Shown: positions 6,066 through 31,200 of the stretch, piece by piece | Position numbering within the stretch: the first letter of the stretch is position 1 | Layout: every line of letters begins with the position of its first letter | Source: a virus | Strand: one strand, 5' to 3' | IMG/VR virus record: IMGVR_UViG_3300044994_000233 | Coordinates: 1-34,482 of that record | Length of the DNA: 34,482 bases | The notes under the pieces: model-generated | Database searches by the model: none | The model's input: the letters and a program-made list of their open reading frames with translations, nothing else | Told to the model about the DNA's origin: nothing | Position numbers and translations under genes: made by a program

Positions 6066-6588
6066 CGCTAAAATTTTGGAGGTGTTGGCGGCATTCGGAG
6101 CAGGCGCGACTATCGTTGGTCTGATAGCGATTGTCGTGCTAATTTATTCACGCAATTCTTTGAGAGAAAGACGAAGCTACAGCGATTCCCTGATAAAAAA
6201 CACCAACGATTTAAGTAAAAGTCTGACAGATAATTTTAATACTATTTTAGCAGCAGTATCCGATTCCAATAAAAGTTTTGTTCAATACTTACAAGAGAAG
6301 CGGCAAGAAGAGCAAATAGTTGTCAATGAAATTTTGACAACGCAAAGGCAGATGCAACTTGAAATGTCTAAAAACAATATTGTGCTTGAAAAGTTAGCCA
6401 GTAATATTGATATGCAGGGCAAAAACTTAGTTACACTTCGACAGCAATTATATAACAATCACATTGAACTCAGGCAATTGTTGCAATCGAACCAAGCACG
6501 TACAGATAAAGAGTTTGCTGAACTCATGCTGTTTTTGGCGGAAATAAAAATAGTCTCTAAAAAAGATAATAATGAGCGAGATTCATGA
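6052..6588 (+). CDS. N-terminal membrane-anchored coiled-coil protein (possible spanin or holin-like)
   Basis: A 178-residue protein with one clear membrane segment (VGLIAIVVLIY, about residues 17-35), then a basic stretch (RNSLRERR) and a long helical region with coiled-coil spacing (TNDLSKSLTDNFNTILAAVSDSNKSF... onwards). It lies right after the M15 endolysin and overlaps it by 14 bases. A single N-terminal membrane anchor plus a coiled coil is the layout of inner-membrane spanins, so a lysis role is a reasonable inference. It is also possible that it is a tail or assembly protein. No second spanin partner with a lipobox is adjacent. Confidence 0.6.
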   Translation: MTAIDAKILEVLAAFGAGATIVGLIAIVVLIYSRNSLRERRSYSDSLIKNTNDLSKSLTDNFNTILAAVSDSNKSFVQYLQEKRQEEQIVVNEILTTQRQMQLEMSKNNIVLEKLASNIDMQGKNLVTLRQQLYNNHIELRQLLQSNQARTDKEFAELMLFLAEIKIVSKKDNNERDS

Positions 6589-6916
6589 TTTGATGAGTCA
6601 ATGGAGCAGTCGCACAAGAGATATTTTGGAGGGAAACTTAGTGCGCATGAATATAGGCATATCCAATAAATTATCGCAGTCGTTGCGCGAAGAAACTACA
6701 ACAAGCGGCGACATGGTAAAATCCTCACTATCAATGCTTGCTCGTGGTCGCTTTCGCGATATGGGCGCAGGCAGCGGCAGTCGAGCCAATTCCAAAAAAA
6801 GAAAGCCCAAAAAATGGTACAGCAGAGCCTATTACGGTCGGCTGTCAAGTCTTTACGGCGCTATCGGCTACAAAATGTCTCAGGACACAATGTCAGCGCT
6901 GCGAAACATCAAGTAA
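6572..6916 (+). CDS. hypothetical phage protein with basic GSG linker
   Basis: A 114-residue protein, last in the rightward operon. Residues 1-60 are helical (DILEGNLVRMNIGISNKLSQSLREE); a flexible GAGSGSRANSKKRKPKKWYSRAYYG segment follows, then GRLSSLYGAIGYKMSQDTMSALRNI. The basic middle could bind nucleic acid or a membrane. It overlaps the preceding gene by 17 bases. The family is not recognised. Its stop faces the leftward repressor stop (6932) with 15 bases between and no clear terminator. Confidence 0.6.
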   Translation: MSEIHDLMSQWSSRTRDILEGNLVRMNIGISNKLSQSLREETTTSGDMVKSSLSMLARGRFRDMGAGSGSRANSKKRKPKKWYSRAYYGRLSSLYGAIGYKMSQDTMSALRNIK

Positions 6917-6931
6917 CTGATTGCCAATATT

Positions 6932-7393
6932 TTAGCCACACTGTCGTAAACACCCACTATACTGATTTTGAAGCAAATCAATCATTTTATCCTTTTGTTC
7001 GAGCAGCTTTTGTAGATAATCTATCTCTTGGATTAAAAGCTGCAATTCGCGTTTGTCATTGCGGCTATAATAGATAGCCTGCGAATCGTTGACGGCAGTT
7101 GTATTGCCCTCGCCAAATACGTATGCGTATATTTTTTTATCTATTTCAGATACAGGCTGATAATTTGGGTCAATATTGAAAGGATTGCCCTCACCTGTCA
7201 GCAACCAATGGAGATTTAACAGGTGATTTGTTTCACGAAGCGCCAATATCTTGGCAAGCGTTGGGTTTGCCTGCGGACGCTTCATACTGTAAAATGCGTT
7301 TTGTGATACCTTGTCTGTTTCGGGGCGAACAATATACCCATGCTTGTATAGCCACTCTAAGCGACTTCCAAAGCCTTTGTCCCAGTTATCCAT
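6932..7393 (-). CDS. HTH transcriptional repressor, CI-like
   Basis: A 153-residue protein on the opposite strand to both neighbouring operons, as expected for a phage switch repressor. The first 70 residues fit the HTH layout of Bacteroidota phage repressors: RLEWLYKHGYI, then VSQNAFYSMKRPQANPTLAKIL and a tail LNLHWLLTGEGNPF, a typical end of this domain. The C-terminus (about residues 111-146, ELQLLIQEIDYLQKLLEQ) is a likely coiled coil for dimerisation; no LexA-like protease part is present, so induction would differ from lambda CI. Its start (7393) lies 46 bases from the operator TTACTTTGTATAGTAA at 7439, so it is the likely reader of the TTACT-N6-AGTAA sites. Confidence 0.75.
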   Translation of the reverse strand: MDNWDKGFGSRLEWLYKHGYIVRPETDKVSQNAFYSMKRPQANPTLAKILALRETNHLLNLHWLLTGEGNPFNIDPNYQPVSEIDKKIYAYVFGEGNTTAVNDSQAIYYSRNDKRELQLLIQEIDYLQKLLEQKDKMIDLLQNQYSGCLRQCG

Positions 7394-7429
7394 AATTCAT
7401 TACTTTTTTTTTAAATTTTTACCATAAAA

Positions 7430-7462
7430 AGTTGCATATTACTTTGTATAGTAATATGTTTG
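7430..7462 (+). promoter_or_regulatory. early promoter with an operator between its boxes
   Basis: The -33 element AGTTG (7430-7434) is followed 20 bases later by TATGTTTG (7455-7462), an exact match to the Bacteroidota -7 consensus TAnnTTTG. Between them lies the palindrome TTACTTTGTATAGTAA (7439-7454). A bound repressor would block RNA polymerase here. Another weak half-site-type copy lies at 7419-7434 (TTACC-N6-AGTTG). The first gene read is at 7516, which leaves a leader of about 45 bases. Confidence 0.65.
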
Positions 7463-7515: not shown

Positions 7516-7761
7516 ATGATAACAAAAAATGAGCCTGTAATATTACACGGTAAAAAAACCTTTAAAAAGCGGAGGTTTTTACCGCTGCCGAAGAACATCC
7601 ATGTATCTGACGAACTCTTTCAAAATCTGAAAGAGTTGAAGCAGGATTTGATGCATAAGTCGTATGCACAGACATTACTTTACATCGCCAACGTTTACTT
7701 TAAAAAATCGCAAAAAGATGAAATTCTTTCTGAAAAGACTCTACCACAAGGGAGGGATTGA
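7516..7761 (+). CDS. small early protein, hypothetical
   Basis: An 81-residue basic protein (MITKNEPVILHGKKTFKKRRFLPLPKNIHVSDELFQ...). I choose the ATG at 7516, since two upstream in-frame starts (TTG 7432, ATG 7456) lie in or before the promoter -7 box. The N-terminal 25 residues are Lys/Arg-rich and the rest helical (LFQNLKELKQDLMHKSYAQTLLYIANVYF). First gene of the early operon. Size and charge fit a regulator, but no domain is recognised. It overlaps the next gene by 44 bases. Confidence 0.55.
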   Translation: MITKNEPVILHGKKTFKKRRFLPLPKNIHVSDELFQNLKELKQDLMHKSYAQTLLYIANVYFKKSQKDEILSEKTLPQGRD

Positions 7762-7891
7762 AGAGCTGCAAAAAGCGATTCAAGCAATCAGAACTGAAAT
7801 AAGCCGAGAAAAGGATGAGAGAGAGAAACAGCGGCTACGCGAAGAGCTAAATGCAGCAATGGAATATTTGAAAAAAATGAAAGAAATATGA
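7718..7891 (+). CDS. small coiled-coil protein
   Basis: A 57-residue protein from the ATG at 7718 (MKFFLKRLYHKGGIEELQKA). The rest is almost entirely charged helix with heptad-like spacing (AIRTEISREKDEREKQRLREELNAAMEYLKKMKE). It overlaps the previous gene and its stop overlaps the next start by 4 bases (7888-7891). No function can be given. Confidence 0.5.
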   Translation: MKFFLKRLYHKGGIEELQKAIQAIRTEISREKDEREKQRLREELNAAMEYLKKMKEI

Positions 7892-8115
7892 AAACCCTAC
7901 TATCTCTCATCGCAGCGGTGCTATTAGCATCCTGCTCAACGCAAATTATCAGCCCAAAAAAGATTTACTACCTGCAAAACGGTAGTAAAGTCTGGGCAAC
8001 TCACGCTGGAATGTTCATCATGGGGCCTCAAAAAAGGCTCATAACCGTTTGGTTCGATTCAAAGGAAGTTCTTGTAAGTGATTCGTTATCCTCAACCCTT
8101 ACAACCAATGAGTGA
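7888..8115 (+). CDS. small predicted lipoprotein
   Basis: A 75-residue protein with a lipoprotein signal peptide: MKTLLSLIAAVLLASC, where LASC is a lipobox and Cys16 would be lipidated after signal peptidase II cleavage. The mature part of about 60 residues has no known domain. In phages such early lipoproteins can act in superinfection exclusion at the cell surface; this is a possibility from size and signal only. Start overlaps the upstream stop; the end overlaps the next gene at 8108. Confidence 0.6.
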   Translation: MKTLLSLIAAVLLASCSTQIISPKKIYYLQNGSKVWATHAGMFIMGPQKRLITVWFDSKEVLVSDSLSSTLTTNE

Positions 8116-8302
8116 GAATTATCATGTAACCATCAATGTGCCCCCTTACAAAGACTTCAAAGGCATAGCTGAAAGAGTGCCAAATACTGATATGTACTTT
8201 GTAAAGTTCATTAATCGCCCTTGCGACTGCGTGCAGGGCGACATTTTTCACCTTAATCAATTGACCATTGACGATGTCAAAGATGGAGATTCGACCAGGT
8301 AA
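8108..8302 (+). CDS. small hypothetical protein
   Basis: A 64-residue protein (MSENYHVTINVPPYKDFKGIAERVPN...). Start chosen at the ATG that overlaps the lipoprotein stop. The VTINVPPYK and MYFVKFI segments suggest a compact beta fold, with a Cys pair (CDCVQGDIFHLNQL). It overlaps the next gene at 8283. Not recognised. Confidence 0.5.
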   Translation: MSENYHVTINVPPYKDFKGIAERVPNTDMYFVKFINRPCDCVQGDIFHLNQLTIDDVKDGDSTR

Positions 8303-8459
8303 AATTTACGGCAACGAGCAAGCCAATGTAAAGGTGCTTGTAAAGTTTGTCGGTAAAAGATTAGTAACCTATGTCCACATTATCGGCGACAGAACAGGGC
8401 GAATACAGCGCAAAATGAAAATTGAAGATTTTCTGCGAATTATGAAAGAAATAAAATGA
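8283..8459 (+). CDS. small hypothetical protein upstream of primase
   Basis: A 58-residue basic protein (MEIRPGKIYGNEQANVKVLVKFVGKR...). The ATG at 8274 is an alternative, adding three residues. It reads like a small beta barrel, similar in style to the protein just before it (both have KVLVKF / YFVKFI). The stop overlaps the primase ATG by 4 bases (8456-8459), so both are probably co-translated. Confidence 0.5.
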   Translation: MEIRPGKIYGNEQANVKVLVKFVGKRLVTYVHIIGDRTGRIQRKMKIEDFLRIMKEIK

Positions 8460-11400
8460 TTAGCAGCAACACTATTGATAGGGTAAAATCCCTGCCCGCT
8501 GACCAAGTAATTGGTCATTACCTGAGCCTGAAAAAGAGCACAGGCGGGAGGTTTGCAGGGCTTTGCCCTTTCCACGATGATAGGCATTTGGGGTCATTCT
8601 ACGTAACCCCAAACAGCAGCAAAGGGGATTATCACTGCTTTGCCTGTGGCGCGCATGGCGACCACATCAAGTTTGTGATGGAATATAAACAGCTTTCATT
8701 TGCCGATGCCGTAGAACTCATCGCCCGAGATAACGGCATACCAGTAGAATATGAAAAAAACGGCAAAACACCGGAACAGGTCAAAGCCGAAAAAGAAAAA
8801 AAGGAATCTCTATCCGATTTCCTGACGCGGGCGGGAAAGTGGTTTGCCGAAAATTTATCCAAATCCCCCAACATACAATACTACCTGCACCGCCTGCGAG
8901 GTATTCACTCAGACACTGCTGCTGCTTTTGGCTTAGGCTACGCGCCTATTGGCGACGTTATGAGCACTAAGTACAAAGAGCAAGCACTTGCCACCGGCTT
9001 AGCGTCGCAAAAACAGCATCGTATCTACGACACCATGCAGAACAGGCTAACCATCGCACTGCATGACCGTCGCGGAGTAGTAATCGGCTACTCAGGGAGA
9101 GCGATGGGCGACCAGCGCGCCAAATACATAAACCCCCCGGATACAGAGCTTTTTAAAAAGAACGAGTACGTGTTCGGCATACATCAAGCAGAACGCGCCA
9201 TTCGCACGGAAGGCTTTGTTTACTTAGTTGAAGGATACTTCAACGTCATGCGCTTGTACCAAAACGACATATGCAATGTCGTTGCGTGTATGGGTACAGC
9301 GCTTACGGATGAGCAAATAAGGATTATTAAAAGATATACGAAAGCTGTCGTATTGCTTTACGATGCAGACAGCGCAGGGCTGAAAGCTACAAAATCAGCC
9401 ATCAAACGCCTGCTCAAAGAAGGCTTTACTGTTAAAGTCTTTGATTGGCAATCATACGACGACACCGCCAAGACTGACATCGACGACATTGGTCTAATAA
9501 TGGAAGGCTACGAAGGACTGCTGCAAAGCACCCTTCGCGAACAAACTGTCCAGTGGTTAGACTGGTGGATAAAGTACACAGAAGAGACAGGAGAAACTGA
9601 TATAGATGCCGCAATCTACACAGAGCTTGCGGATATGATTATCAGTATTCCGGATGAGGTGATGCGCGAAATGTGGCAAACCCTTGCCATAAAAATTCGC
9701 CCGATTATGCGGAAGGTTATCCGCAGCCGGAAAAAAGCAGCTAACAACGATGACGAGGATGAAAAGCGCATTCGTGTGCGCATGGATGACACAGGCACGC
9801 AAGTAATCAACGGGCGCGGCTACATGACGCACATCGGCGACTTTAAAATCGCCATGCTTTATCAGTTGCAGATGAAAGCTAAAAACGACTGCAAATGGAT
9901 TGTCAAAGTATGGCGGGCTGGCGAAGAGCCTGTTTTCATTGTCATTACCAATGACGATTTACACAGTGTAAAAAACCTAAAAAAGGTATTCTTCCGCGAG
10001 CGCTACCCAATAGACCTTGACGAAAAGCAGCTTTCATATTTGCTTGAATTTTTACTGGAAGGCTGCAAATATGCAGAAGAGGTCAGCATCATCGGCTGGC
10101 ATCGTGAAGCCAAGATGTTCTTTTTTGCCAACGCAGCATACGACCCTTACCAGGACAAAGTATTCAATCCCAACGAGCTGTCCATCGTTGAAAAAGACGG
10201 CTACGGATATGCAATGCCCTACACGAATGATGAAAAGGTAAAGATGATGGGCTTTGAAGAACAGGCTCGTTACAAATATGAACCATCGCCCATCACACTT
10301 CGGCAAATTGCCGACTTTATCCGCGAAGGTTGGGGTGAAACGGCAATGGTTGCATTAAGTTTTGCAATTGCTACAATGTTTATTGACCACGTGAGCATGG
10401 CAGTCAATCCGCTGCAAAACTTTTTTCCGATTTTGTACCTGAAAGGCTATGCCGGTTCGGGTAAATCAACCTTAGCGAACTTGTTGGCTAACTTTTTTGG
10501 AAACAATCCGACATCCATCAGCTTGGGCAGCGTTACGCCTGCAGCCATCCCAAAGAGAATTGCGAAGTACTCAGGTACTGTGATGCACTTGGAAGACTAC
10601 GGCTCTAACCGCGACGAATTGCCCAAAATAACCGCATTGCTCAACGGGTTTTGGGAACGCCGCAGCAAAGAGATGACATCGCAGGACAACATTGACGAAA
10701 CTAAGTCTTATCCGTTTGAGTCATCCATCGTCGTTACATCTAACATCCTTCCACAAGACCCGGATAACCGCCTGCAAACCCGTGTGATATTTATGCTCTT
10801 GAATCAGACTAGCAGAACTCAGGAGCAGCGCACAAGGTTTAGCAATGCTTTGGAAGTGCTAATGAAGAACTCATGGACACATGTAACAACGCAAGTCATG
10901 CGTCATCGTGAGGTCATTGAGCAGCAGTTTCAAGATGTGTACAACAAAATTGCAGCTTCACTCAAAGATGTGATGGTTAATTATCACGTTGAGGACAGGA
11001 TAATTAACAACTACGCACAAGTGCTTACTGTGCCTTACATCCTTATCAAGGAGGGATTAATCGACATAGGTGTAAGGCAATTGGATTTGGCTGAAATATT
11101 TGCGAAGAACCTGCGCAACCAAGTCAGCAACTTGGCTGAAAGCACTCCTCTTGAAAAGTTTTGGGAGATACTGCAAGCGGGTTACGAGAAATATATGCAG
11201 GCGCGTCGCGCAGCTGCATATGTGGACGATAACGGCACTACGCATTTTAAGGAGGTGCCATTCAGCCCCATGTATTTCATGCCTGACGTACATTTCAAGG
11301 TGGATGATTGCTACATGGTTAGACATCTGGCTACACCAGCCATCAAGTCAAAAGTCATAAAGCTGAAATGGAACGTCACATATGACTTTTACAAACGTCA

Positions 11401-13825: not shown

Positions 13826-14344
13826 TAATTAATTGATTATCAGTCTTTTAAGCAGTGCAATTCCGGACTTGTCCGGACTGATTGGGGAAAATCCGGAAAC
13901 GGTTACATCATTTGCTTGAAATGCGCTTGTAATTAATTGATTATCAGTCTTTTAAGCAGTGCAATTCCGGACTTGTCCGGACTGATTGGGGAAAATCCGG
14001 AAACAGTTACATTATTTGCTTGAAATGCGCTTGTAATTAATTGATTATCAGTCTTTTAAGCAGTGCAATTCCGGACTTGTCCGGACTGATTGGGGAAAAT
14101 CCGGAAACGGTTACATCATTTGCTTGAAATGCGCTTGTAGTTAATTGATTATCAGCATTTTAAGCATTGCAATTCCGGACTTGTCCGGACTGTTTTGGAA
14201 AATCCGGAAACGGTTACATCATTTGCTTGAAATGCGCTTGTAGTTAATTGATTATCAGCATTTTAAGCATTGCAATTCCGGACTTGTCCGGACTGATTGG
14301 GGAAAATCCGAAAACAGTTACATTATTTGCTTGAAATGCGCTTG
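13826..14344. repeat. five tandem 104-bp direct repeats (candidate origin iterons)
   Basis: Units start at 13826, 13930, 14034, 14138 and 14241, with period 104, 104, 104, 103 and 104. Each begins TAATTAATTGATTATCAG (or TAGTTAATTGATTATCAG) and carries the perfect 7+2+7 palindrome TCCGGACTTGTCCGGA, then AATCCGGAAAC and a tail GAAATGCGCTTG. The first three units are nearly identical; the last two share small changes, such as GCATTTTAAGCATT instead of GTCTTTTAAGCAGT. The tract lies right after the primase operon. Dense repeats with palindromes are common at phage and plasmid origins, and the units could bind a replication initiator or partition factor. They are too regular, and too long without unique sequence, to be a CRISPR array. 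Confidence 0.8.
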
Positions 14345-14351
14345 TAGTTAA

Positions 14352-14392: not shown

Positions 14393-14408
14393 TATGCATT
14401 GGCAAATT

Positions 14409-14450
14409 AACATATGTTAATATTAACATATGTTAATATTAACATATGTT
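14409..14450. repeat. three AACATATGTT palindromes in a 16-bp ladder
   Basis: AACATATGTT occurs at 14409-14418, 14425-14434 and 14441-14450, separated by AATATT-type spacers, so the whole tract is a perfect AT-only-rich palindrome of about 42 bp. Each 16-bp step is about one and a half helical turns. It is a candidate DNA-unwinding element or a cooperative operator next to the iteron-like repeats. Confidence 0.7.
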
Positions 14451-14473
14451 GATAAAATAATATAAAAAACCAG

Positions 14474-25178: not shown

Positions 25179-25239
25179 AGGGTTGCCGAACCCTTAAAAA
25201 ATCGGACGGGGGTTGCCGAAAACCCGAAACAGAGTAGGC
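25179..25239. repeat. leader repeat: hairpins GGGTTGCCGAA...CCC with GAGTAGGC, copy A
   Basis: First AGGGTTGCCGAACCCT (25179-25194), a short hairpin, then a 34-base unit at 25206-25239 made of ACGGGGGTTGCCGAAAACCCG and AAACAGAGTAGGC. The same unit recurs at 25804-25839 and 26266-26299, each time before a gene. In RNA it forms GGGTT-gccgaa-AACCC. Copy A also precedes a longer leader up to the start at 25298. Confidence 0.7.
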
Positions 25240-25297
25240 AAGGGACGTAGCCCACGCCCTGCATGGTGCGAAAGTGGGTAGTAAAACAATTTAAAAA

Positions 25298-25803: not shown

Positions 25804-25839
25804 ACGGGGGTTGCCGAAAACCCGTATAAAAGAGTAGGC
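25804..25839. repeat. leader repeat, copy B
   Basis: ACGGGGGTTGCCGAAAACCCG followed by TATAAAAGAGTAGGC: same hairpin as copy A, with small changes between the hairpin and the GAGTAGGC box. It sits between terminator copy 1 and the gene at 25863, 24 bases before the ATG. Confidence 0.75.
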
Positions 25840-25862
25840 GCAACTTTTAAAAAATACAAAAA

Positions 25863-26265: not shown

Positions 26266-26299
26266 ACGGGGGTTGCCGAAAACCCGAAACAGAGTAGGC
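26266..26299. repeat. leader repeat, copy C
   Basis: ACGGGGGTTGCCGAAAACCCG plus AAACAGAGTAGGC, identical in its 34 bases to copy A at 25206-25239. It precedes the HTH gene (26332) and the Cas12f-like gene, just after terminator copy 2. If RNA from upstream has to pass the terminator, this hairpin could act as an antitermination (put-like) site, an inference only. Confidence 0.75.
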
Positions 26300-26331
26300 G
26301 TATATTAGATGAAGAAGATGAAAAGCTATAT

Positions 26332-26676
26332 ATGACGCAAATCATAAAATATTTAAAACGAATAAAGCCGCTCGTAAGCATTAACAAGCTCGAACGGCTT
26401 GCAAATATCCCACAGGGGACTTTAAACAAAGCATTTTCGGGGGGAAGGGCACTACCAGATGTTCACGTATTCCCACTCATGAAAGTGCTTATACGCATTT
26501 TAGGTGTAGTCGCCATCGATAAATGGCGCTACACAGCCGAAGATGATGACACGGTCATCTTTGTAGAAAGAGATGTCAATGCGCAAGAACGAGAGTTCTA
26601 CGATGCAATCGGTATAGCAGAGCTGCTTAATGTTGATGATAACACAAATAAAACTACTAATGATTATAACTCGTAA
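26332..26676 (+). CDS. HTH protein upstream of the Cas12f-like gene
   Basis: A 114-residue protein (MTQIIKYLKRIKPLVSINKLERLANIPQGTLNKAFSGGRAL...). The segment LVSINKLERLANIPQGTLNKAFSGGRALPDVHVFPLMKVLIRIL is a typical XRE-like HTH of Bacteroidota phages. The rest is acidic (AEDDDTVIFVERDVNAQERE). It overlaps the Cas12f-like start by 17 bases, so the two proteins are co-produced and might act together, for example as autoregulator or guide-complex partner. A frame extension upstream crosses the leader repeat and is rejected. Confidence 0.65.
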   Translation: MTQIIKYLKRIKPLVSINKLERLANIPQGTLNKAFSGGRALPDVHVFPLMKVLIRILGVVAIDKWRYTAEDDDTVIFVERDVNAQEREFYDAIGIAELLNVDDNTNKTTNDYNS

Positions 26677-27724
26677 AATCGAACTCTACGCAGGCAAGCA
26701 GGAATTTTGGGATTGGTTTCACAAAATTCGATATGCCGTGCCGCGCATGATGAATGCAATGATGCAAGAACTCATCGCAGCAGAAGCACTTGTATCCGCC
26801 GAAGCTCATAAACACGGCGCAAACAAAGATGCTTGGCAAGCTGCACGCAACGCTGCTTTTGGCCCGGAAAGCCTGTTCAACACCAGCAATCAAAACGTTG
26901 CGTACAGAGCAAGCAAGGCATTCGAGGACGACGTACCATCCGTTATCCGAAGCGCAGCAGCATCTGCGGTCTGGCAGCGATTTAAACAAGATGCGAATAA
27001 AGTACAAAAATTAGAAGCAACATATAGCTTCTACAAACTCTCTTCGCCAATTCCTTTCACTAAATCAGCCATTACACAAATAAATGAAGAAGGATTTACA
27101 GCCTTCAAACACGACTTCAAATTTGTATTTGGTGCAGATAAGCAAGGCAACAAATCAATTGTAAAAAAAATAATTTCAGGTGAGTATCAAATGTCCGACA
27201 GTGCGCTAAAATATGTGCGGAGAACAGGTCGCAAGCCCAAACTTTACCTGCTTCTAATTGTAAAACTGCCTGACGTGGAGAAACAGCCGCAAGAACGCAC
27301 TGCACAACTTGACATTTCACCATTTTGCCCTGTATTGTTCATTTTTGAAGGGAAAAGCATACCAATCGGGGATAGCTCAATCCTCATGCGCACAAGATTG
27401 AAGTTTGATGCACGCCGTCAGCAATTGCAAAAGAGTGTAACCACTGCCAAAGGCGGACATGGACGTAAAAGAAAAAACAAAGCAGCATGGGCATTCGCAG
27501 ATGCAGAAAAGCGATTTGCAGACACTTTTACGCATCAAATAACAGCCAAAGTTATTGAAAGATTGCAGACGCAAAGAATTGGCAAACTCAGTATATTACC
27601 CATTAATGTGCCTGAAAATTTTGATTTGAACGAAATTATCAGGTATGGTAGCTACAATAATATTGTGGAAAAATTGCGCTACAAATGCGCTAAATGTGGA
27701 ATTGATTTGGTAGATTTGCGTTAA
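26660..27724 (+). CDS. Cas12f-like RNA-guided protein, C-terminally truncated, nuclease-dead type
   Basis: A 354-residue protein from the ATG at 26660 (MIITRKIELYAGK), the start form of Cas12f and TnpB proteins. Residues 168-185 (VKKIISGEYQMSDSALK) and 245-276 (LKFDARRQQLQ with GHGRK at 266-270) match the Cas12f layout before and in the bridge helix. The RuvC-I block is LDIS with Asp218 where Cas12f has the metal Asp. The RuvC-II position (around residues 309-315, KLSILPI) has no glutamate, and the protein ends at YKCAKCGIDLVDLR, before the zinc ribbon and RuvC-III Asp. The remaining 86 bases before the array are too few to encode them. So it should bind a guide RNA and DNA but not cut. Family placement is by my own alignment of motifs; it is shorter than Cas12f (400-700). 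Confidence 0.8.
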   Translation: MIITRKIELYAGKQEFWDWFHKIRYAVPRMMNAMMQELIAAEALVSAEAHKHGANKDAWQAARNAAFGPESLFNTSNQNVAYRASKAFEDDVPSVIRSAAASAVWQRFKQDANKVQKLEATYSFYKLSSPIPFTKSAITQINEEGFTAFKHDFKFVFGADKQGNKSIVKKIISGEYQMSDSALKYVRRTGRKPKLYLLLIVKLPDVEKQPQERTAQLDISPFCPVLFIFEGKSIPIGDSSILMRTRLKFDARRQQLQKSVTTAKGGHGRKRKNKAAWAFADAEKRFADTFTHQITAKVIERLQTQRIGKLSILPINVPENFDLNEIIRYGSYNNIVEKLRYKCAKCGIDLVDLR

Positions 27725-27810
27725 GTGGCTATTCGCATTAGCCTTATGGTGAGGTCAGCCGAAAGGCGCAGGCACTCACTGAGGTACACAATTGCAACTA
27801 TAATCGCAGG
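27725..27810 (+). ncRNA. candidate structured RNA (tracrRNA- or scaffold-like) between the Cas12f-like gene and the array
   Basis: This 86-base gap can form two hairpins: GGCTA (27727-27731) with TAGCC (27739-27743), and GTGAG (27749-27753) with CTCAC (27775-27779), the latter enclosing GCC-GAAA-GGC (27758-27767), a GAAA tetraloop. Cas12f systems carry a tracrRNA in just this place. A strong anti-repeat is missing: only GGTAC near 27784 and TCGCA near 27804 can pair with parts of the repeat. The RNA might serve as a scaffold for the protein without a long anti-repeat, or be a leader only. Confidence 0.4.
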
Positions 27811-28206
27811 GTAGTAATGCAGCTTTTTGATAAAGTACCATTGCGACCAGCAAAGGCTAAATACAGGGAGTTTGATACACGAGTAGTAATGCAGCTTTTT
27901 GATAAAGTACCATTGCGACGCTTTAACAGGCTTGCGCATATCTGACGTACTGAGTAGTAATGCAGCTTTTTGATAAAGTACCATTGCGACGAATTTTCAA
28001 ATTACCAGAGCATTACGCTTGCGGAGTAGTAATGCAGCTTTTTGATAAAGTACCATTGCGACCAAAGATACTATGTTTGCCGTTAAAGATGCTGTTAGTA
28101 GTAATGCAGCTTTTTGATGAAGTACCATTGCGACGAATTTTCAAATTACCAGAGCATTACGCTTGCGGAGTAGTAATGCAGCTTTTTGATAAAGTACCAT
28201 TGCGAC
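27811..28206 (+). CRISPR. CRISPR array: six 37-nt repeats, five spacers
   Basis: Repeats at 27811-27847, 27883-27919, 27954-27990, 28026-28062, 28098-28134 and 28170-28206. They start GTAGTAATGCAGC and end AAAGTACCATTGCGAC. Spacers are 35, 34, 35, 35 and 35 nt. Repeat 5 differs by one base (A to G at 28119). Spacers 3 (27991-28025) and 5 (28135-28169) are identical. Each repeat folds on itself: GTAATG with CATTGC, CTTT with AAAG, ends GT with AC. Spacer 2 (27920-27953) reads ALTGLRISDVL, a tyrosine-recombinase motif. No cas1, cas2 or cas4 gene is nearby. The array ends 4 bases before the stop of the opposing tape-measure gene. Confidence 0.9.
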
Positions 28207-28209
28207 ATT

Positions 28210-31200
28210 TCATATCCCCCCAATCGCCTCTATATCCGCCTTTTTAGCTTCAAAATTCTTAAAATCTTCGTGAACGAAGACGACTTTAAGCTCGCGCTTC
28301 ATTGCAACAATTTCACTACGAAGCGCTTGCACCTCGCGGATAAGCGAACTCATCAGGCTATTGTCTTGCTCGGGTAGGGTAGGGGCGATGGTACTACCAG
28401 CCGCAGGCGCACCCTGTCGGCGCATGGACTCGGCAATATTGGCAAGCGCCGCACCGGACGGTGTGCGAAGTAACCAAGCAGGCATCACGTACTCGTTTGC
28501 ATGGACAGTGCCAACGGCTTTACTGTCGTCAGCAGCTTTATCTGTAAAGCCACCACTTTTATATCCGCCCGTTACTTCGCGTGCAGCAGGTGCTGGCGGT
28601 TCTGGGGCGCTTGCCAAAATCTCCTTCGCACGATTTATATTCGCAAAAACAGTGGCTACCGTCGTGGCGATTGCCGCTAAGTTGCCCGGAAACGGCACAG
28701 CCATAGCACTTGCGATGCCCGAACTGATTGCCTTTGCCGTATCAATCGCAATCTGTCCGATGGCAAGTGCTTTACCAAAGCGATTGTTTTCAGCAGCCGA
28801 ATTGTTAATAGCCTGATTGATTGCTTGCAGACTACGACCGACACTTGCCGCAGCTTCTAACCGCGCTTGTGTGATGCGCTCGCGCTCCGCAGCTACACGC
28901 TTTTCTTCGCGCAACTGTGCCTCGTTCGCCTCAATTTGAATAGCTAACAACCGGTTTTGTATCTCTTTCCGCTGTATCTCAGTCAAATTGCCAAACTCTG
29001 CATCCAACTCCAATTTGGCAAGTAAAAATTGCTTCTCAGAGTCAAGTTCCTGCTGCTTAAATTCAAATTCAATTGCCGCCAGTGCAGCTTCGCGCTCTTC
29101 AACCGACAGTTTTTCATTTGCCCACAGTGCAGCTTGCTTTTGCAGAAGCGAATTGTTAGCCTCTAACAAACTCAAATCGTAGTAGGCTTTTTCCCTTTGC
29201 AAACGCTCGTCTATTTCATTCTGACGCATTTGCATGAGCAATTCGCTTTGCTCTTGCTCACGCAGCAAGCGCTCATCCTCGTATTTACGCGTCAGTGCGT
29301 CAATTTCTCGCTGTAATTTTTCCTCGATTAGTAGCCGCTGCGTTGCCTTTTGTTCCTCCGAGCCTTTCAGCTCAGCCAACTGATTATCCGCATGCAAGCT
29401 AAGCAAAGCAAGTTCTTTATCATAACCATCCTGCATCAGCTCTATGCGCATCCTCTGGATTGCTTTTGCCGCTTCCTGCTCTGCTTTCAGCCGCTCTTCT
29501 TGCTGCCTTTTGAGTTCTGCATTGTTGCCGCCTTTTTTACCGTCGTTTCTTTCCAACTCCAATTGCCGCTTTCTGTTCGCTTCGGCAATGGCTTTGTCTC
29601 GCGCTTCTTTTTCCTCTTTGCTCATGCCTTTACCCATGTCGCGCGGCAATTTCGCCGTGCTGCCACCCAACAATGGATTGTTTTTGGGGTCGTACATGAC
29701 TTTTTTGGCATCCTGCATCTCCTCTTCCAACCTATCTTTCATGCCTTTGCCAAACGCACCCGCAATCCTGTCGCCGGCATTGGTGAACAGGTCGCCAAGC
29801 GCTTTGAAATCGAATGTGTAAAGCGCCTTGTAGAGTTCATACACGATTTTCGCTCCTTCTTTAAAGGCTTCCCAAAGCCCTACAACTTTCATCCGAAATA
29901 GTTGTGACTCTTTCCAAGCGGTGTAGAATGCAGCCGTAAGCGCTGCCACCGCTGCAATGACAATGCCTATCGGGTTGGCAGTCAATGCCGCGTTGAGTGC
30001 CCATTGAGCCATCGTTGCAGCGCGTGTGGCTATCATCTTTGCTTTTTCAGCCGCTGCCAAGCGAAGCGCATTCGCAGCTGCGGCTATTGACTGCGCATTG
30101 AAGGTTACTAACGCTACGCCAAGCGCGTAAAACCACTGCTGATTTTCCCGCACAAATTTCGGCAGTTCCCGAAGACCGTCAATCATCAGCAAAATCAACT
30201 TGATGCCCTGAGTAAGGGCAGGCAATATTAAATTTCCTAACGAAGCAACAAAACCGTCTATTTTCTTTTTCGCTTTCTCGTATTGCGCAGCAAAATTTTC
30301 ATTTTTGATGTTGAACTCATCAACAATAGATGTATTTTTCTGAAATTCTTCCGCCGCCAAACGCTGTTTCTCGCGTACCAAGTCTGTTTGGTTAGCCAGC
30401 AACGCCATCACCTTAGTAGCCTCTTGGCTGCCGATCTTCATCCGTTCAAGCGCTTTGGCTACTTGGTCACTGTCTAAGCCCTTGAAACTCTCCGCCAATC
30501 GCAAAAACATTTCGTTGGGGTCGCTGTTCAGCAAATCTTTAAACTCTTGCTCGGTAATGCCGATTTGGGCAGCGAAAGCCGCTGTCTCTTTACCGGCAGT
30601 AAGCAAAATATTCGAGATACCGCCAGAAGAGATTTCAGCCGAAAGCCCCAACTCTTGAAAAGCTGCCCCCAATGCAAGCGTTTGTTCAAGGCTCGGCGCT
30701 AAATTATCCCCTAACTGCCCGATACGTGCGGCAAACTCCGCTACTACCGGCGCAGTAGCCGTGCCGGCACTGCCCAGCGCATTCAGAGCAGAACCAATAC
30801 GCGACATTGCCTCGCCTGCTTTCAAATTCTTTGTCTCTTGGAATAACTGTTTAAGTGTGCCCAGCTCCTTTGCCGCCTGCTCCGCTCCGCCGGTAAACTC
30901 ATCGCCAAGCGCTACAACGATTTGGTCGGTCGCTTGGACAAAGCCTAAAATATCCTCTTTCGCAATGCCGATTTGCCCTGCTACTTTGGCGATTTCGCGC
31001 AAATCAGATGACGATGTGCGTGTATCAATCTTGCTCAACTCCTGATTTAATGCCTCAACTTCTTTCAGCGTTAGCCCTGTTGTCTTTTGAATGTCAGCAA
31101 ATTGGTCGGATATTTTAGCGGCATTGTCTAATACGCCGACCACAAATGCGCCAAAATTTTGAGCCAGCGTCGAAATAACATCACCCGCAACAGTTGCTGC

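What the first reader, a model, noticed from the sequence alone, without database searches (positions are those of the whole stretch)
27920..27953. Spacer 2 encodes a tyrosine-recombinase motif
Read in frame from its first base the 34-nt spacer gives ALTGLRISDVL. TGLRISD with the active-site Arg is among the best conserved parts of XerD/phage integrases. No integrase is present in this window, so the target is likely a rival phage, integrative element or host Xer gene. A dead effector blocking a competitor's integrase would be a form of conflict between mobile elements.
Basis: partly seen in the sequence, partly recalled or inferred. Interest (0 to 1): 0.8.

Follow-up and report, generated by a model that had tools for sequence, protein, structure and literature searches.

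The report
Phage dead-Cas12f spacer resembles integrase gene
A small bacterial virus carries a DNA-cutting-dead CRISPR protein of the Cas12f family with its guide RNAs, and one guide almost certainly copies the active-site region of a tyrosine integrase of another mobile element, so the virus probably silences a rival's integrase; the exact target was not found.

Summary
The 34-nt spacer at 27920-27953 is in a real six-repeat CRISPR array and reads ALTGLRISDVL in frame 0. The match to the tyrosine-recombinase Arg box is well above chance: 0 of 100,000 shuffled spacers reach its profile score. Of 34 IMG/VR stretches carrying the codon pattern for TGLRISDV, 29 lie in Pfam Phage_integrase ORFs. 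Its Asp after 'RIS' fits mobile-element integrases; 13 of 13 Xer-type proteins have Glu there. No protospacer was found, so the target and PAM are unknown. A 354-364 aa Cas12f homologue lies just upstream (PADLOC 8e-40; best fold match the dCas12f-gRNA complex); it has lost the RuvC-II Glu and everything from RuvC-III on. A conserved, covarying tracrRNA scaffold lies between gene and array. Chromosomal relatives have a nearby sigma factor in 72 of 80 loci; the window has none. Two other viral contigs carry the same sigma-less dCas12f plus array. Best reading: a phage-borne CRISPRi-like repressor with an integrase among its targets. Phage 'dCas14' and phage spacers against other phages are already published (PMC7162821), so this is a variant of a known kind.

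The parts
26660..27724 (+). nuclease-dead, C-terminally truncated Cas12f effector (354 aa from ATG 26660; ORF can start at ATG 26630, 364 aa)
   Evidence: PADLOC Cas12f E=8.1e-40 and Cas12u3 2.3e-38; PDB sequence matches Cas12f 6.5e-18 and dCas12f 9n9c 2.4e-13; AlphaFold model pLDDT 85.8 with best fold match 9n9c. ATG 26660 matches the start of relatives.
27725..27810 (+). tracrRNA-like scaffold: hairpin 1 GGCTA..TAGCC (27727-27743), stem 2 GTGAG/CTCAC, then GGTAC (27783-27787), complementary to GTACC in the repeat
   Evidence: Aligns with scaffolds downstream of or beside other Cas12f/dCas12f genes; 95% of cells paired, covariation 0.464 against 0.149 (sd 0.043) in shuffles, 0 of 500 as high. 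The GGTAC/GTACC pairing is read from the sequence and was not tested apart.
27811..27847 (+). CRISPR repeat 1 (37 nt)
27848..27882 (+). spacer 1 (35 nt), no match found
27883..27919 (+). CRISPR repeat 2
27920..27953 (+). spacer 2 (34 nt), frame 0 ALTGLRISDVL: tyrosine-recombinase Arg box, sense orientation
27954..27990 (+). CRISPR repeat 3
27991..28025 (+). spacer 3 (35 nt), identical to spacer 5
   Evidence: no match in phages; no exact central 21-mer in IMG/VR
28026..28062 (+). CRISPR repeat 4
28063..28097 (+). spacer 4 (35 nt), no match found
28098..28134 (+). CRISPR repeat 5, variant copy (GTAGTAATGCAGCTTTTTGATGAAG...)
28135..28169 (+). spacer 5, duplicate of spacer 3
28170..28206 (+). CRISPR repeat 6 (last); the tape-measure ORF on the other strand ends at 28210

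Best explanation
The spacer is a guide derived from the Arg-box region of a mobile-element-type tyrosine recombinase, probably of a rival temperate phage or integrative element of Bacteroidota. The crRNA joins the tracrRNA encoded just downstream of the effector gene, and both load the nuclease-dead, truncated Cas12f encoded by this phage. The complex binds the integrase gene without cutting. The guide has the sense sequence, so it pairs with the template strand, the orientation in which dead Cas12a blocks elongation best. The likely result is lower integrase expression and a handicap for the rival's integration or excision. Shown here by sequence: array, spacer motif, effector homology, loss of catalytic residues, conserved scaffold, absence of a sigma partner and of Cas1. 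Inferred: the target's identity, DNA binding, repression, and the benefit to the phage.
For: Motif statistics and specificity. Asp instead of Glu argues for a mobile-element integrase rather than XerC/D. Effector is Cas12f. RuvC-II Glu is replaced (LSILPI against INLEDL) and the protein ends before RuvC-III and the zinc finger, as in 9n9c and the chromosomal dead homologues. The tracr scaffold covaries. No sigma factor while 72 of 80 chromosomal relatives have one matching RpoE of PDB 9n9q. The same arrangement without sigma occurs in viral contigs L038 and L039. Precedents: Cas12m silences by binding (PMC10442227, PMC11013384); dead Cpf1 represses best on the template strand (PMC5460296); a phage 'dCas14' and phage spacers against other phages (PMC7162821).
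Against: No protospacer found in any collection searched, so the rival is hypothetical. None of the other three distinct spacers has a match, and none of 27 spacers of the related L039 array matches a known phage. No expression data. The effector is on a very long branch (2.2-2.4 changes per site) and keeps one Asp aligned with RuvC-I. PAM unknown.
Confidence: 0.66

Rival explanations
1. The guide acts on an integrase linked to this phage: its own integrase in an unassembled part, or that of a co-resident sister prophage, so the array controls lysogeny or superinfection rather than a true rival.
For: No end repeats were found, so the record may be a fragment. Related dead Cas12f genes sit a few kb from integrases: in viral contig L039 (integrase ORF 7559-9007) and in L063 (integrase ORF 6082-7455).
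Against: No integrase and no spacer match elsewhere in the 34 kb. Self-targeting of a lysogeny gene would need regulation that is not evident.
Confidence: 0.12
2. The effector borrows a host RpoE-type sigma factor in trans and switches target genes on, as the chromosomal dCas12f-RpoE pair appears built to do.
For: Closest fold match is dCas12f 9n9c, whose entry series includes RpoE (9n9q).
Against: No sigma gene in the window. The Arg box lies inside the coding region, a poor place to start transcription of a functional integrase. Viral relatives L038 and L039 also lack sigma nearby.
Confidence: 0.08
3. The array is used by another, active effector of the host (or of another element), giving cleavage of the integrase-bearing element.
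For: Active Cas12f genes with arrays occur in other viral contigs (L035, L036, L044). Borrowing host Cas proteins was suggested for phages with lone arrays (PMC7162821).
Against: The effector and tracr lie directly beside the array on the same strand. The repeat was found in none of the 206 loci held.
Confidence: 0.06
4. The resemblance is chance, and the spacer comes from an unrelated gene.
For: No integrase containing the spacer was found in any collection.
Against: 0 of 100,000 shuffles reach the score. 29 of 34 natural occurrences of the codon pattern are in integrases. The frame starts at base 1 and stays open for 11 codons.
Confidence: 0.04
5. The target is the host chromosomal XerC/XerD, to disturb dimer resolution or Xer-dependent integration.
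For: XerC/D share the TG-R box; some phages depend on or interfere with Xer (general knowledge).
Against: 13 of 13 Xer-type proteins sampled have Glu at the position of the spacer's Asp, and none has the ALTGLRISD core.
Confidence: 0.04

Closest known systems
Phage-encoded type V-F / Cas14 systems, including a 'dCas14' with a spacer against host glycyl-tRNA synthetase (Clades of huge phages, PMC7162821)
   Same: Phage-borne Cas12f-family effector with lost catalytic residues, short array without acquisition genes, proposed repression instead of cleavage; some phage spacers there target other phages.
   Different: Here the phage record is 34 kb, the protein is truncated before RuvC-III as well as lacking the RuvC-II Glu, and the recognisable spacer is integrase-like.
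Bacteroidota dCas12f-RpoE (PDB 9n9c, 9n9m, 9n9o, 9n9q)
   Same: Truncated dead Cas12f of the same length and end point; related guide scaffold; best fold match.
   Different: Most chromosomal loci found have a nearby sigma factor and no evident CRISPR array; the window has an array with four distinct spacers and no sigma factor.
Cas12m (type V-M)
   Same: Nuclease-deficient Cas12 that interferes by tight DNA binding and transcription block (PMC10442227, PMC11013384).
   Different: Different family; single crRNA instead of a tracr scaffold; retains a full-length RuvC with an altered triad.
TldR, phage-encoded TnpB-derived RNA-guided repressors (PMC13418256)
   Same: Dead TnpB/Cas12-like protein on a temperate phage used for RNA-guided gene control.
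   Different: TldR regulates host flagellin genes; here there is a tracrRNA and a multi-spacer CRISPR array.

Membership tests
Type V-F (Cas12f) CRISPR system | Cas12f effector homology | tested here: met
   PADLOC Cas12f 8.1e-40; PDB Cas12f 6.5e-18; fold match
Type V-F (Cas12f) CRISPR system | CRISPR array beside the effector | tested here: met
   Six 37-nt repeats, spacers 34-35 nt
Type V-F (Cas12f) CRISPR system | tracrRNA | tested here: met
   Conserved covarying scaffold 27725-27787; transcription not tested
Type V-F (Cas12f) CRISPR system | RuvC DED catalytic triad for DNA cleavage | tested here: not met
   RuvC-II Glu absent and RuvC-III missing through truncation; so it is a dead derivative, not an active V-F nuclease
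Type V-F (Cas12f) CRISPR system | Adaptation gene cas1 | tested here: not met
   PF01867 not found in the record; minimal phage systems usually lack it too (PMC7162821)
dCas12f-RpoE transcription system | Truncated dead Cas12f | tested here: met
   Same end point as 9n9c
dCas12f-RpoE transcription system | Adjacent RpoE-type sigma factor | tested here: not met
   None in the window by profile or Pfam; present in 72 of 80 chromosomal relatives
Spacer from a tyrosine recombinase gene | Arg-box motif TG-R-S-D/E in frame | tested here: met
Spacer from a tyrosine recombinase gene | Matching protospacer DNA with a PAM | tested here: inconclusive

The most novel reading that the evidence does not exclude
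Small Bacteroidota phages repeatedly carry a sigma-less, nuclease-dead Cas12f with a tracrRNA and CRISPR array as a programmable repressor aimed at competitors' integration genes: an RNA-guided conflict between temperate elements in which the rival is silenced, not cut.
Probability: 0.35. Interest if true: 0.75.

Novelty: new variant of a known kind. Interest (0 to 1): 0.52.

Why it matters
Dead Cas12f proteins in Bacteroidota chromosomes are tied to a sigma factor, but I know of no tested function for phage copies with arrays and without sigma. A spacer that can be read as an integrase active site gives a concrete prediction: repression of a competitor's integration. If true, it would show CRISPR interference by silencing in phage-phage conflict, and it offers a natural compact repressor with guide scaffold for testing.

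Tried and rejected
Protospacer searches that gave nothing real: blastn of spacer 2 in phages (best 22-25 nt chance matches) and plasmids; full degenerate peptide ALTGLRISDVL and ALTGLRISD in IMG/VR; TGLRISDV pattern in IMG/VR gave integrases but at most 24 of 34 identical bases; exact 20-mer in genome contigs; up to 3 mismatches in 395 Bacteroidota genomes; exact 17-mer in IMG/VR gave three chance sites, none in an integrase frame. Spacers 1, 3 and 4 in phages and an exact central 21-mer of spacer 3 in IMG/VR: no match. The 27 L039 spacers against phages: no match. No close relatives of the effector or terminase in IMG/VR by single-protein search. A simple duplex search for an anti-repeat was not clearly above shuffles; the alignment and covariation approach was used instead. 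Whether the effector lost activity independently of the chromosomal dead clade stays open: window plus dead clade form one side of a branch with only 88/79 support, on a long branch. Papers on dCas12f-RpoE were not found in the held library, so that comparison rests on PDB titles and molecule names.

Full report
What was checked. The window is a whole IMG/VR virus record of 34,482 bases, with terminase, portal, S49 protease, tape measure and DnaG-type primase genes. Terminase relatives are mostly phages of Bacteroidota, although the closest is a Microcystis phage. The array has six 37-nt repeats (27811-28206), with spacers of 35, 34, 35, 35 and 35 nt; spacers 3 and 5 are identical and repeat 5 has one change. 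Spacer 2 reads ALTGLRISDVL from its first base.

Is the integrase reading more than chance? I collected 67 distinct Arg-box motifs from integrases of seven Bacteroidota genomes and two viral records, not chosen for this motif. The spacer scores 20.4 bits on their profile, inside the range of real motifs (40 of the 67 score as high or higher). No shuffle of 100,000 reaches it (maximum 15.9) and the other spacers are far below. Because this test was chosen after the motif was noticed, I add an independent check. A DNA pattern for TGLRISDV occurs in 34 IMG/VR stretches, and 29 of the ORFs are PF00589 integrases, 18 with Phage_int_SAM_5 and 12 with Arm-DNA-bind_5. Sequences such as ALTGLRWSDIE and FSCFTGLRISDVKNL occur in real integrases. 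The residue two after the Arg-x-Ser start of the box is Glu in 13 of 13 Xer-type proteins and Asp in most others; the spacer has Asp, which argues against host XerC/D.

Is there a known target? No. The collections and sensitivities are listed under 'tried and rejected'. A natural protospacer should share nearly all 34 bases; the best integrase site seen shares 24. This limits every statement about the target to 'a tyrosine recombinase of this type'. The record itself holds no second copy of the spacer.

What reads the guide? The gene just upstream (26660-27724) is a Cas12f homologue, with a good model (mean pLDDT 85.8, pTM 0.61) whose best fold match is the dCas12f-gRNA complex 9n9c. Aligned with active relatives, it keeps an Asp at RuvC-I, lacks the RuvC-II Glu and ends before RuvC-III and the zinc finger, at the same point as 9n9c. 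Two of three catalytic carboxylates are missing, so cleavage is very unlikely; DNA binding is inferred. Between gene and array lies a scaffold shared with other Cas12f loci, with compensatory changes in two stems. It fits the orientation in which the guide is the 3' part of a plus-strand crRNA and has the sense sequence of the integrase motif.

How might it act? Among 80 relatives in genomes, 72 have a sigma factor gene close by, related to the RpoE chain of PDB 9n9q. The window has none, nor Cas1. Viral contigs L038 and L039 also carry dead Cas12f with arrays and no sigma in the stretch held, so this arrangement recurs. Without a nuclease or a sigma factor the simplest action is a transcription block. 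The sense guide pairs with the template strand, which is the effective orientation for dead Cpf1 (PMC5460296); whether this holds for Cas12f was not tested.

What is known already? PMC7162821 reports phage type V-F systems, a phage 'dCas14' with a spacer against a host gene, and phage spacers against other phages. Cas12m shows interference by binding (PMC10442227, PMC11013384). TldR shows phage use of a dead TnpB as a regulator (PMC13418256). The present case adds a truncated, sigma-less member in a 34-kb phage record with an integrase-like spacer. I rate it a new variant of a known kind; the dCas12f-RpoE papers themselves could not be read here, so some of this may already be described.

Noticed in passing
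window 25206-25240, 25804-25840, 26266-26300 (+): Three nearly identical 35-37-nt copies of the Rfam DUF805b motif (RF02914), each shortly upstream of a small gene in the region before the effector; possibly a shared regulatory element.
   Followed up: partly
window 13826-14351: 104-bp unit repeated 5.1 times in tandem at 95% matches in a stretch without listed ORFs, followed by a short 16-bp-unit repeat at 14406-14454.
   Followed up: no
window 27991-28025 and 28135-28169: Spacers 3 and 5 are identical and repeat 5 carries a single change, suggesting duplication of a repeat-spacer unit instead of new acquisition.
   Followed up: partly
L063 4353-5489 and 6082-7455: In a Bacteroidales genome a dead Cas12f of the branch that holds viral L038 lies near a tyrosine recombinase, without array or sigma factor found: probably a mobile element.
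   Followed up: partly
L039 5263-7250 and 7559-9007: A viral contig with dead Cas12f has an array of at least 27 parsed spacers followed by a tyrosine integrase gene.
   Followed up: partly
L072 6097-6170 and L073: Dysgonomonas dead Cas12f loci with a scaffold downstream that looks like a single guide and no sigma factor found nearby: an exception to the sigma-linked pattern.
   Followed up: no
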